Positions 2,835-12,116 of a DNA stretch of 39,693 nt are shown piece after piece. The translations under genes and the position numbers were made by a program. This stretch comes from Ardenticatenia bacterium (GTDB lineage Bacteria; Chloroflexota; Anaerolineae; 4572-78; NAK82), in the NCBI GenBank assembly GCA_003130875.1, contig QEXY01000038.1, positions 1-39,693 of the forward strand, given 5' to 3'. Numbering within the stretch: the stretch's first letter is position 1; every line of letters begins with the position of its first letter. Under the pieces are notes generated by a model. It searched no databases. It was not told the origin of the DNA and saw only the letters and a program-made list of their open reading frames with translations.

Positions 2835-4214
2835 CTATATCGCCTCGACCTTGGGAAGGTCGGCGAGTGACTTCTCCAGCGCTTCCGGCGGGAACTCGAA
2901 GTCCTCCAGCTTGCCGTTCAGGTAAGCATCGTATGCCGACAGATCCAGGAGACCATGGCCACTCAGGTTGAAGGCGATGACGCGCGGCTTGCCCTCCGCC
3001 TTGGCTTGGAGTGCCTCGTCCACCGCCACGCGCACGGCATGGGCCGATTCGGGAGCAGGCAGGATGCCTTCGGTGCGCGCAAAGGTGACAGCGGACTCAA
3101 AGACTGGATTCTGGTAAACGGCCACTGCCTCCATCAGGCCCTGATCCACCAATGCTGCCACAATGGGCGCCATGCCATGATAGCGCAGCCCGCCGGCGTG
3201 GATGCCGGACGGCACAAAGGTGTGCCCCAATGTGTGCATCTTGATCAACGGGGTTAAGTGCGCCGTGTCCCCATAGTCATAAGCATATTTGCCACGAGTG
3301 AGGCTGGGGCAGGCACGCGGCTCCACCGCAACGAAGCGCGTGTTCAGCCCCTTGTGCAGACGCTCGCGCAGGAACGGCAGGGCAAAACCGGCAAAGTTCG
3401 AACCCCCTCCCACACAGCCGATCACTACATCGGGATAGTCGTCCGCCAGCTCGAACTGTTTGAGCGCCTCTTCGCCCACCACGGTCTGATGCAGGATCAC
3501 GTGATTGAGCACGCTGCCCAAGCTGTACTTCACGGTTCCGCCACTCGTCGCCGCGACTTCGACTGCCTCGCTGATAGCAATGCCCAGGCTGCCGGGCGAA
3601 TCGGGATCCTGTTCCAAAATCCTGCGGCCAGCTTCGGTCAACGGCGAGGGGCTGGGATGCACCTTGGCGCCATAGACTTCCATCAGATTGCGCCGGTACG
3701 GTTTTTGATAGTAGCTCACCTTGACCATGAAGACTTCTACCTCGATGTCGAAGAAGGCCCCCGCCATGGAGAGCGCGCTACCCCACTGTCCCGCACCGGT
3801 CTCGGTGGCCAGCTTTTTGACCCCTTCTTGTTTATTGTAGAAAGCTTGCGCGATGGCCGTGTTGAGCTTGTGGCTTCCCGCCGGGCTCACCCCCTCGTAT
3901 TTGTAATAGATACGCGCCGGTGTGTCCAGGAACTTCTCCAGCCTTCGGGCGCGGATCAGGGGGGAAGGTCGGTAGAGCTTATACATCTCTCGCACCGGCT
4001 CTGGAATCTCGATGTACCGCTCGGGGCTGACCTCCTGCATAATCAATGCCATCGGGAAGAGAGGGGCGAGATCGTCCGGGCCCACCGGTTGTAATGTGGC
4101 CGGATGAAGCACCGGTGGCAATGGTTTCGGCAGGTCGGCCAGGACGTTATACCACGCTTTGGGGATGTCCTGCTCGCTCAGAAGAAATTTGGTTCGATCG
4201 TTTTGGGTTGTCAT
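2835..4214 (-). CDS. trpB2: Tryptophan synthase beta chain, TrpB2 type
   Basis: A 459-aa PLP enzyme that condenses indole with serine to make tryptophan. It is of the longer TrpB2 class, with an N-terminal extension relative to the roughly 400-aa TrpB1. The PLP Schiff-base lysine sits in SHKLNTA (K116), the catalytic glutamate in TETGAGQWG (E138), and the PLP phosphate is held by GGGSN (about 269-273). The ATG at 4214 is preferred to the in-frame TTG at 4220 because AAGGAGG lies 10 nt upstream of it. No trpA or other trp gene is adjacent, so it probably salvages indole or works with distant partners. Expression is under a tryptophan T-box leader (4262-4693), which independently supports the assignment. 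Confidence 0.95.
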
Positions 4215-4279
4215 GGTCAATTTCCCTCCTTAAATGATAAATGTTTTTCATAACGGATTGCCCAAGTAGCCTAAACACA

Positions 4280-4337
4280 AAAGCCCTTTCGCCTGCTATG
4301 CTCCGGATTGCCGGAACTCTGAGGACGAAAGGGCTTT
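4280..4337 (-). terminator. T-box regulated intrinsic terminator
   Basis: The minus strand forms a 12-bp stem AAAGCCCTTTCG / CGAAAGGGCTTT (arms 4337-4326 and 4291-4280), followed by a T-rich run (TTTTGTGTTT counting the stem end). The 34-nt loop holds a smaller hairpin (TTCCGG...CCGGAG). The 5' arm lies just after the T-box sequence, as expected for a terminator that competes with the antiterminator. Confidence 0.85.
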
Positions 4338-4410
4338 GTCCGCCGCTTCCGCGGTGCCACCTCAATTAGACCGCATGCCACTCGATAGGCGTCAATGTGC
4401 GCCAAGCAAA

Positions 4411-4437
4411 AGACCCGTGTGAAACGCACACGGGTCT
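4411..4437 (-). ncRNA. Stem III-like or second terminator-like hairpin in the T-box leader
   Basis: A perfect 11-bp stem (AGACCCGTGTG / CACACGGGTCT) with a 5-nt loop lies between the Stem I/II region and the T-box. On the transcript strand it is followed by a short T-run (TCTTTTGC), so it resembles an intrinsic terminator. By position it may simply be T-box Stem III. Confidence 0.7.
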
Positions 4438-4699
4438 CGAGTGCACCAGTCTCACTCTACGGGTACGCCGTTGAGCACTTCGCGAAAGTGCTCTCCTTAA
4501 TACCCAGCTCTCTGATAACGGTAGAGTTTCCGGCGCCGCCTACTCGTCCGATGGACTGACTTTGGGGGCGCAACTCCCGGGCCCATTCCCCACCCGCGCA
4601 CATACTGACCTCGCACCTTACGTCAGCTCTCTGAATGCCGCTTGAGTGGGTACTATTCCCGTTCGCAGCCGTTGGAGTATTCTCTTTTATTTACCCTTT

Positions 4700-4728
4700 A
4701 TTATATGACCGAATGGCCTGATTGTCAA
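4700..4728 (-). promoter_or_regulatory. Consensus sigma-70-type promoter of the trpB2 T-box transcript
   Basis: TTGACA (4728-4723), an exact 17-bp spacer and TATAAT (4705-4700) match the housekeeping consensus perfectly. The predicted start near 4693 leads straight into T-box Stem I. Regulation therefore appears to act by attenuation and not at initiation. The 130 bp between this promoter and the next gene (4859) shows no other feature. Confidence 0.88.
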
Positions 4729-12087: not shown

Positions 12088-12116
12088 TTGACAGCCCGAT
12101 TCCCGGGCTCTATAAT
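12088..12116 (+). promoter_or_regulatory. Perfect consensus promoter of the DUF177-rpmF run, with a dyad in its spacer
   Basis: TTGACA (12088-12093), a 17-bp spacer and TATAAT (12111-12116). The spacer region contains the inverted repeat AGCCCG-ATTCC-CGGGCT (12093-12109). The initiation site would fall at about 12123-12124, that is, on the ATG of the next gene, so a leaderless mRNA is predicted. Confidence 0.85.

What the first reader, a model, noticed from the sequence alone, without database searches (positions are those of the whole stretch)
4262..4728. Tryptophan T-box with matching specifier, T-box base and perfect promoter controls an orphan trpB2
The specifier TGG (4585-4583), the T-box TGGC whose C would pair with G73 of tRNA-Trp, and the downstream trpB2 all agree. 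T-box control of an isolated trpB2, with no trp operon, implies that this beta subunit responds to tryptophan starvation by itself, for example in indole salvage. The leader is about 430 nt, longer than usual.
Basis: partly seen in the sequence, partly recalled or inferred. Interest (0 to 1): 0.6.

Follow-up and report, generated by a model that had tools for sequence, protein, structure and literature searches.

The report
Tryptophan T-box with extra terminator, trpB2
A real tRNA-sensing RNA switch turns on a second tryptophan-making gene when tryptophan runs short; such switches are known, but this one carries an unreported second stop-signal hairpin that recurs only in the tryptophan switches among those examined in its bacterial phylum.

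Summary
A transcriptional Trp T-box (RF00230, 95.8 bits, above the gathering score) lies at 4675-4318(-). UGG is in the specifier position (4585-4583) and the T-box is UGGC. The genome's tRNA-Trp has anticodon CCA and G73. The leader has a perfect promoter, an antiterminator/terminator pair and a trpB2 behind it. The genome is Chloroflexota, class Anaerolineae.

The genome does hold a complete trp operon (trpE-GD-C-F-B1-A), behind its own UGG T-box, so trpB2 is the second unit of a two-unit Trp regulon. T-boxes on trpE and a trpB-like gene in Chloroflexota were reported in 2008.

Two things look new. (1) Stem III of this leader contains a second intrinsic-terminator-like hairpin (T0, 4436-4408). 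It recurs in 29 of 54 Trp T-boxes (1.1 expected) and in 0 of 22 non-Trp T-boxes of relatives. Its loop is UCAC/UCAU in 30 of 31 cases, against 22 of 414 ordinary terminators. (2) In relatives, trpB2 sits beside a gene resembling the O-phosphoserine-making kinases SbnI/SerK, in three cases behind a Trp T-box. That fits TrpB2 being O-phosphoserine dependent. The function of T0 is inferred, not shown.

The parts
4700..4728 (-). sigma-70-type promoter, TTGACA (4728-4723), 17-nt spacer, TATAAT (4705-4700)
   Evidence: exact match; coordinates
4318..4675 (-). T-box leader, RF00230 core (Stem I to antiterminator)
   Evidence: 95.8 bits, E 5.7e-20
4583..4585 (-). specifier codon UGG in the Stem I specifier loop (GAA-UGG-G-CC)
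   Evidence: same position in most Trp T-boxes of relatives
4541..4544 (-). Stem II S-turn AGUA
   Evidence: aligned to AGUA of RF00230
4516..4521 (-). F-box CCGUUA of the Stem IIA/B pseudoknot
4461..4505 (-). linker hairpin GGGUA...UACCC between Stem IIA/B and Stem III
   Evidence: shared with the genome's trpE leader
4453..4457 (-). purine string GAGUG (RRRxG) before Stem III; its AA partner follows Stem III at 4367-4366
   Evidence: motif definition in PMC7583486
4368..4452 (-). enlarged Stem III of the discriminator domain
4408..4436 (-). T0: terminator-like hairpin GACCCGUGUG-CGUUU-CACACGGGUC plus UUUU, nested in Stem III, loop region with UCAC
4349..4363 (-). T-box sequence GAGGUGGCACCGCGG; UGGC (4359-4356) pairs with GCCA of tRNA-Trp
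4273..4337 (-). T1: the usual T-box terminator (AAAGCCCUUUCG...CGAAAGGGCUUUUGUGUUU), -33 kcal/mol, exclusive with the antiterminator
4224..4231 (-). Shine-Dalgarno AAGGAGGG
2835..4214 (-). trpB2, 459 aa, TrpB-like PLP enzyme
   Evidence: NF009057 738 bits (cut-off 366), TIGR01415 666 bits (cut-off 519); nearest solved structures 6hul, 4qys, 6hte

Best explanation
The region is a transcription-attenuating Trp T-box riboswitch that controls trpB2, the second unit of a two-unit tryptophan regulon in an Anaerolineae (Chloroflexota) bacterium. When tryptophan is short, uncharged tRNA-Trp pairs with UGG in Stem I and with UGGC in the antiterminator, terminator T1 does not form, and TrpB2 is made together with the trp operon. 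TrpB2 most likely condenses indole with O-phosphoserine, catching indole from outside or lost by TrpA/TrpB1. The leader also belongs to a lineage-specific variant: Stem III carries a second terminator-like hairpin (T0) with a UCAC loop and a U-tract, transcribed just before the decision region. I think T0 is most likely a built-in brake. It would make RNA polymerase pause, or terminate part of the time, after Stems I and II have been made, giving scarce tRNA-Trp time to dock and lowering basal read-through. Shown by sequence and statistics: the T-box, its specificity, the second Trp unit, and the conservation and Trp-restriction of T0. Inferred: regulation in vivo, phosphoserine use, and the role of T0.
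For: T-box, specifier, T-box base and tRNA-Trp G73. Second UGG T-box on a complete trp operon. A T-box lies within 3 kb upstream of 22 of 43 trpB2 genes of relatives; some leaders were cut by contig ends. T0: perfect hairpin plus T-tract in 29 of 54 Trp T-boxes, 1.14 expected from dinucleotide shuffles, 0 of 22 non-Trp T-boxes, Fisher p 3e-6. Loop UCAY in 30 of 31 against 22 of 414 ordinary terminators. 29 of 31 T0 leaders also keep T1. T0 is 96% identical among three congeners, while the Stem III stretch after it is 34% and the linker hairpin 60% identical. T0 forms with probability near 1 in the nascent RNA. TrpB2 and SbnI/SerK-like kinase: adjacency in 9 sampled genomes, and operons T-box-trpS-trpB2-kinase (L257), T-box-trpB2-kinase (L258) and T-box-kinase-trpB2 (L017).
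Against: No expression data. T0 is missing from the genome's own trpE leader and from several Trp T-boxes (Chloroploca, Thermoflexus-type trpS), so it is not required for Trp sensing. In the window the T0 U-tract is only four U. No conserved RNA competitor of T0 was found, so if it is regulated, the partner is unknown. The window's own genome has no recognisable SbnI/SerK-like gene.
Confidence: 0.72

Rival explanations
1. T0 is a second, regulated attenuator. A protein or RNA binding the UCAC loop decides termination at T0, so the leader needs two signals before trpB2 or trpE is expressed.
For: The loop motif is conserved although the stems differ in sequence (30 of 31). Hairpin and U-tract occur together. 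T1 is kept in 29 of 31 leaders. T0 is restricted to Trp leaders.
Against: No binding partner is known. No conserved competing RNA strand was found upstream or in T1.
Confidence: 0.25
2. T0 is a structural cap of Stem III, not a terminator. The UCAC loop docks on the GUGA of the purine string or the GGUGG of the T-box and shapes the aminoacylation-sensing domain.
For: UCAC is complementary to the GUGR of both strings in the T0 leaders (read). Stem III is part of the discriminator (PMC7583486).
Against: The GUGR strings are conserved in T-boxes in general, so no covariation can be seen. This does not explain the U-tract.
Confidence: 0.2
3. T0 is a non-functional insertion (a stray terminator or small mobile palindrome) that happens to sit in a tolerant loop.
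For: Stem III is known to tolerate insertions (PMC7583486). Some Trp T-boxes lack T0.
Against: Presence in many families, restriction to Trp T-boxes, conserved loop and position, and higher conservation than its flanks.
Confidence: 0.08
4. trpB2 here is not a tryptophan synthase but another PLP enzyme that happens to lie behind a Trp T-box.
For: NCBIfam names the family only 'TrpB-like PLP enzyme'.
Against: Trp T-box control, with trpS or the kinase-like gene in the same operon in relatives, and similarity to solved TrpB2 enzymes over the whole length.
Confidence: 0.06

Closest known systems
T-box riboswitch, transcriptional class (Rfam RF00230), Trp-specific
   Same: Stem I with UGG specifier, Stem II S-turn, F-box, RRRxG-Stem III-AA, UGGN antiterminator, competing terminator.
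   Different: Stem III carries a second terminator-like hairpin with UCAC loop and U-tract (T0). There is also an added linker hairpin between Stem IIA/B and Stem III.
T-boxes on trpE and a trpB-like gene in Dehalococcoides (Wels et al. 2008, PMC2494555)
   Same: Same phylum, and the same two Trp-related targets in one genome.
   Different: Different class. The passages read do not describe a terminator in Stem III, and the gene is only called trpB-like.
Tandem or partially duplicated T-boxes
   Same: More than one decision-like element in one leader.
   Different: Only one specifier hairpin and one T-box sequence here; only the terminator-like part is doubled, and it lies inside Stem III.
TrpB2_o genes (Merkl 2007, PMC1854888); O-phosphoserine-dependent TrpB2 (Busch 2014, cited in PMC11917138)
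   Same: A trpB2 outside the operon in a genome with an operon-borne trpB1.
   Different: Substrate untested here. By bit score the protein is nearest to the chain in 6hul (from memory the operon-linked S. solfataricus type). T-box control is not part of that definition.

Membership tests
T-box riboswitch (RF00230) | covariance model match above the gathering score | tested here: met
   95.8 against 93 bits, full length 1-219
T-box riboswitch (RF00230) | specifier codon matching the regulated pathway | tested here: met
   UGG at 4585-4583 in the covariance alignment; downstream trpB2
T-box riboswitch (RF00230) | UGGN pairing with the NCCA end of the cognate tRNA | tested here: met
   UGGC at 4359-4356; tRNA-Trp CCA with G73 in the same genome
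T-box riboswitch (RF00230) | mutually exclusive antiterminator and intrinsic terminator | tested here: met
   the 3' side of the antiterminator (CCCUUUCGUCCUC) overlaps the 5' arm of T1; T1 -33 kcal/mol with U-tract
T-box riboswitch (RF00230) | RRRxG-Stem III-AA discriminator motif | tested here: met
   GAGUG 4457-4453 and AA 4367-4366
T-box riboswitch (RF00230) | tRNA-dependent read-through | not testable with these tools
   needs in vitro transcription or a reporter
canonical T-box architecture without a second terminator | no intrinsic terminator-like hairpin between Stem II and the T-box | tested here: not met
   T0 at 4436-4408; 29 of 54 Trp leaders against 1.14 expected
TrpB2 | family models TIGR01415 / NF009057 above cut-off, TrpB1 model below | tested here: met
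   666 of 519 and 738 of 366 bits; TIGR00263 145 of 392 bits
TrpB2_o | outside the trp operon in a genome with an operon-borne trpB1 | tested here: met
   trpB1 (TIGR00263 620 bits) in the C37 operon
TrpB2 | use of O-phosphoserine instead of serine | not testable with these tools
   only indirect: kinase-like neighbour in relatives
SbnI/SerK serine kinase (neighbour in relatives) | equivalog model score above cut-off | tested here: not met
   L017: 94 of 350 bits; best in class 114; but PDB SbnI matches at 4e-19, and the HE and DGxxR motifs are kept in the proteins read

The most novel reading that the evidence does not exclude
Trp T-boxes of Chloroflexota are two-gate switches: besides the tRNA-controlled terminator T1, a second terminator nested in Stem III with a conserved UCAC loop is regulated by a separate, still unknown signal or factor, so that trpB2 or trpE transcription integrates two inputs.
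Probability: 0.25. Interest if true: 0.75.

Novelty: new variant of a known kind. Interest (0 to 1): 0.52.

Why it matters
T-box control of trpB2 itself adds a member to a known kind. The embedded terminator T0 matters because Stem III was only recently recognised as part of the aminoacylation sensor, and reviews list insertions there as unexplained. Here is one that is frequent, specific to one amino acid among the T-boxes examined, and carries a conserved loop, so it can be tested directly. Annotation pipelines that trim T-box sequences at a poly-U could also mistake T0 for the regulatory terminator. Independently, trpB2 sitting beside a gene resembling serine kinases that make O-phosphoserine, in three cases behind a Trp T-box, gives genomic support for the biochemical finding that TrpB2 enzymes use O-phosphoserine.

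Tried and rejected
(1) A leader peptide with Trp codons overlapping T0 (classical attenuation): by eye, the GTG-started frame that crosses T0 in the window is broken by a stop in L007, so it was rejected; no systematic search was made. (2) An RNA competitor of T0: complementarity of the T0 5' arm to the upstream leader, and of the T0 3' arm to T1, is no better than with partners shuffled among leaders. (3) The UCAC loop binding tRNA-Trp: the genome's tRNA-Trp has no GUGA or GUGG (read). (4) A UCAC-GUGA pseudoknot: compatible in the leaders read, but the partner is invariant, so there is no covariation test; left open. (5) T0 as a generic terminator of these genomes: loops differ. (6) The automated T0 calls in L009, L209 and L219 were inspected and discarded as false; the stricter hairpin test also gives none there. 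(7) The first tRNA-Trp pattern was too strict and found nothing; a looser one worked. T0 outside Chloroflexota could not be tested: there was no second scan of genome contigs and no Firmicutes locus at hand. In the phylum-wide pattern search, L242, L243 and L245 are matches without a T-box and were discarded.

Full report
WHAT IS THERE. The minus strand of 4728-4214 holds, in order: a perfect sigma-70-type promoter, a T-box leader, a Shine-Dalgarno sequence and trpB2. RF00230 matches 4675-4318 at full length with 95.8 bits against a gathering score of 93. The alignment places UGG (4585-4583) in the specifier loop, in the context GAA-UGG-G-CC. The S-turn AGUA, the F-box CCGUUA, the purine string GAGUG before Stem III, the AA after it, and the T-box GGUGGCACC are all present. 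Terminator T1 (AAAGCCCUUUCG...CGAAAGGGCUUUUGUGUUU, -33 kcal/mol) overlaps the 3' side of the antiterminator. The whole leader folds better than shuffles (z -3.6). The tRNA-Trp found in the genome has anticodon CCA and discriminator G73, which fits the C of UGGC.

THE GENE. The 459-aa product scores 738 and 666 bits to the TrpB2-type models NF009057 and TIGR01415 (cut-offs 366 and 519) and fails the TrpB1 model (145 of 392). The nearest solved structures are the TrpB entries 6hul, 4qys and 6hte. Its nearest relatives are Anaerolineae and Ardenticatenia MAGs at 94-96% identity.

THE CLAIM OF NO TRP OPERON. This is wrong for the genome. Contig C37 carries trpE, a trpG-trpD fusion, trpC, trpF, trpB1 and trpA in a row, behind a second T-box, also with UGG (96.4 bits). 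A search of the genome for RF00230 finds just these two T-boxes. trpB2 is therefore one of two Trp T-box units. By Merkl's scheme (PMC1854888) it is a trpB2_o: outside the operon, in a genome with an operon-borne trpB1.

HOW COMMON IT IS. Of 43 trpB2 genes in class-level relatives (window included) whose upstream DNA was read, 22 have a T-box within 3 kb upstream on the same strand; some others are cut off by contig ends. The operon varies: T-box-trpB2; T-box-trpS-trpB2 (L009, L011, L116, L117, L124); T-box-(trpS)-ATPase-like gene-trpB2 (L151, L152, L153, L155). Wels et al. 2008 (PMC2494555) already listed T-boxes on trpE and a trpB-like gene in Dehalococcoides. T-box control of trpB2 in this phylum is therefore a known kind.

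THE UNEXPECTED PART: T0. Between Stem II and the T-box, inside Stem III, the leader has a second terminator-like hairpin (GACCCGUGUG-CGUUU-CACACGGGUC-UUUU, 4436-4408). It is 96% identical among three congeners, while the rest of the 3' side of Stem III is 34% and the linker hairpin 60% identical. I examined 76 T-boxes: those found with trpB2, plus others of at least 275 nt taken without regard to gene. A perfect hairpin of at least 6 bp followed by a T-rich tract occurs in 29 of 54 Trp T-boxes, where dinucleotide shuffles give 1.14, and in 0 of 22 T-boxes of other specificity (Fisher p 3e-6). T0 occurs in both trpE leaders and trpB2 or trpS leaders. A looser definition gives 31 T0 leaders; 30 have UCAC or UCAU at the loop, against 22 of 414 other terminators in the same DNA. 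29 of the 31 also have T1. A pattern for the T0 layout matched 20 of 400 Chloroflexota genomes, and the reversed control 1; most matches inspected are followed 58-83 nt later by a T-box and three are chance. One true match (L244) lies outside the class of the window. Caution: specificity classes were assigned from specifier, T-box base and downstream gene, partly by hand, and T0 was detected by foldability, so stem covariation is not independent evidence. The loop conservation, the Trp restriction and the shuffles are.

WHAT T0 MAY DO. In the nascent RNA T0 forms with probability near 1, so it can act before the tRNA-dependent decision. No conserved RNA strand competes with it. It may be a brake or pause, a second regulated terminator, or a structural cap of the discriminator domain. 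I favour the brake, because Trp tRNA is scarce (general knowledge) and only Trp T-boxes carry T0, but this is inference. The review PMC7583486 states that Stem III belongs to the aminoacylation sensor and that insertions in T-box domains are unexplained. I found no description of a terminator there in the papers read, and the library holds open-licence papers only.

WHAT TRPB2 MAY DO. TrpB2 enzymes use O-phosphoserine (Busch et al. 2014, as cited in PMC11917138). In relatives, a gene similar to SbnI/SerK, kinases that make O-phosphoserine, lies beside trpB2. In the class sample, 9 of 82 genomes with such a gene (G029, G450, G500, G504, G512, G517, G561, G563, G566) have it on the same strand 71-506 nt downstream of trpB2; G548 and G572 have it within about 2.4 kb. 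By a rough count, chance would give well under one. L257 reads T-box-trpS-trpB2-kinase-like, L258 T-box-trpB2-kinase-like and L017 T-box-kinase-like-trpB2; L017, L257 and L258 all have T0. The proteins score below the SbnI equivalog cut-off, so kinase activity is a prediction. They keep the HE and DGxxR motifs seen in the SbnI alignment. The window's genome has no such gene detected, so its phosphoserine would have to come from the serine pathway (general knowledge). An earlier count said at least 10 genomes with expectation 0.04; on recount the adjacent genomes named are 9, plus L017 from a separate search.

VERDICT. The T-box is a new member of a known kind; the T0-bearing leader is a new variant. 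Its function is open and directly testable.

Noticed in passing
L257, L258, L017; G029, G450, G500, G504, G512, G517, G561, G563, G566: trpB2 lies beside a SbnI/SerK-like (ParB-fold serine kinase) gene; in L257, L258 and L017 the operon is behind a Trp T-box. Suggests co-regulated supply of O-phosphoserine for TrpB2.
   Followed up: partly
L151, L152, L153, L155: A conserved gene that reads like an ATP-binding AAA/ABC-type ATPase (GxxGxGKST motif, not run against family libraries) sits between the T-box (or trpS) and trpB2 in four genomes of different families; its link to tryptophan is unknown.
   Followed up: no
window 4505-4461 (-) and relatives: A linker hairpin (GGGUA...UACCC with variable tip) between Stem IIA/B and Stem III is shared by Trp T-boxes with and without T0, including the genome's trpE leader.
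   Followed up: no
L219, linker of the T-box at 31-312: A non-Trp T-box linker contains a hairpin reading GGTTCGAACCC followed by TTTT, resembling a tRNA T-arm.
   Followed up: no
window 12088-12116 (+): A second exact TTGACA-17-TATAAT promoter-like site.
   Followed up: no
G042, G043, G054, G333, G464, G466, G468, G472, G511, G571, G582 trpB2 matches: Several relatives show one stop codon inside the trpB2 match; decay, sequencing error or recoding was not examined.
   Followed up: no
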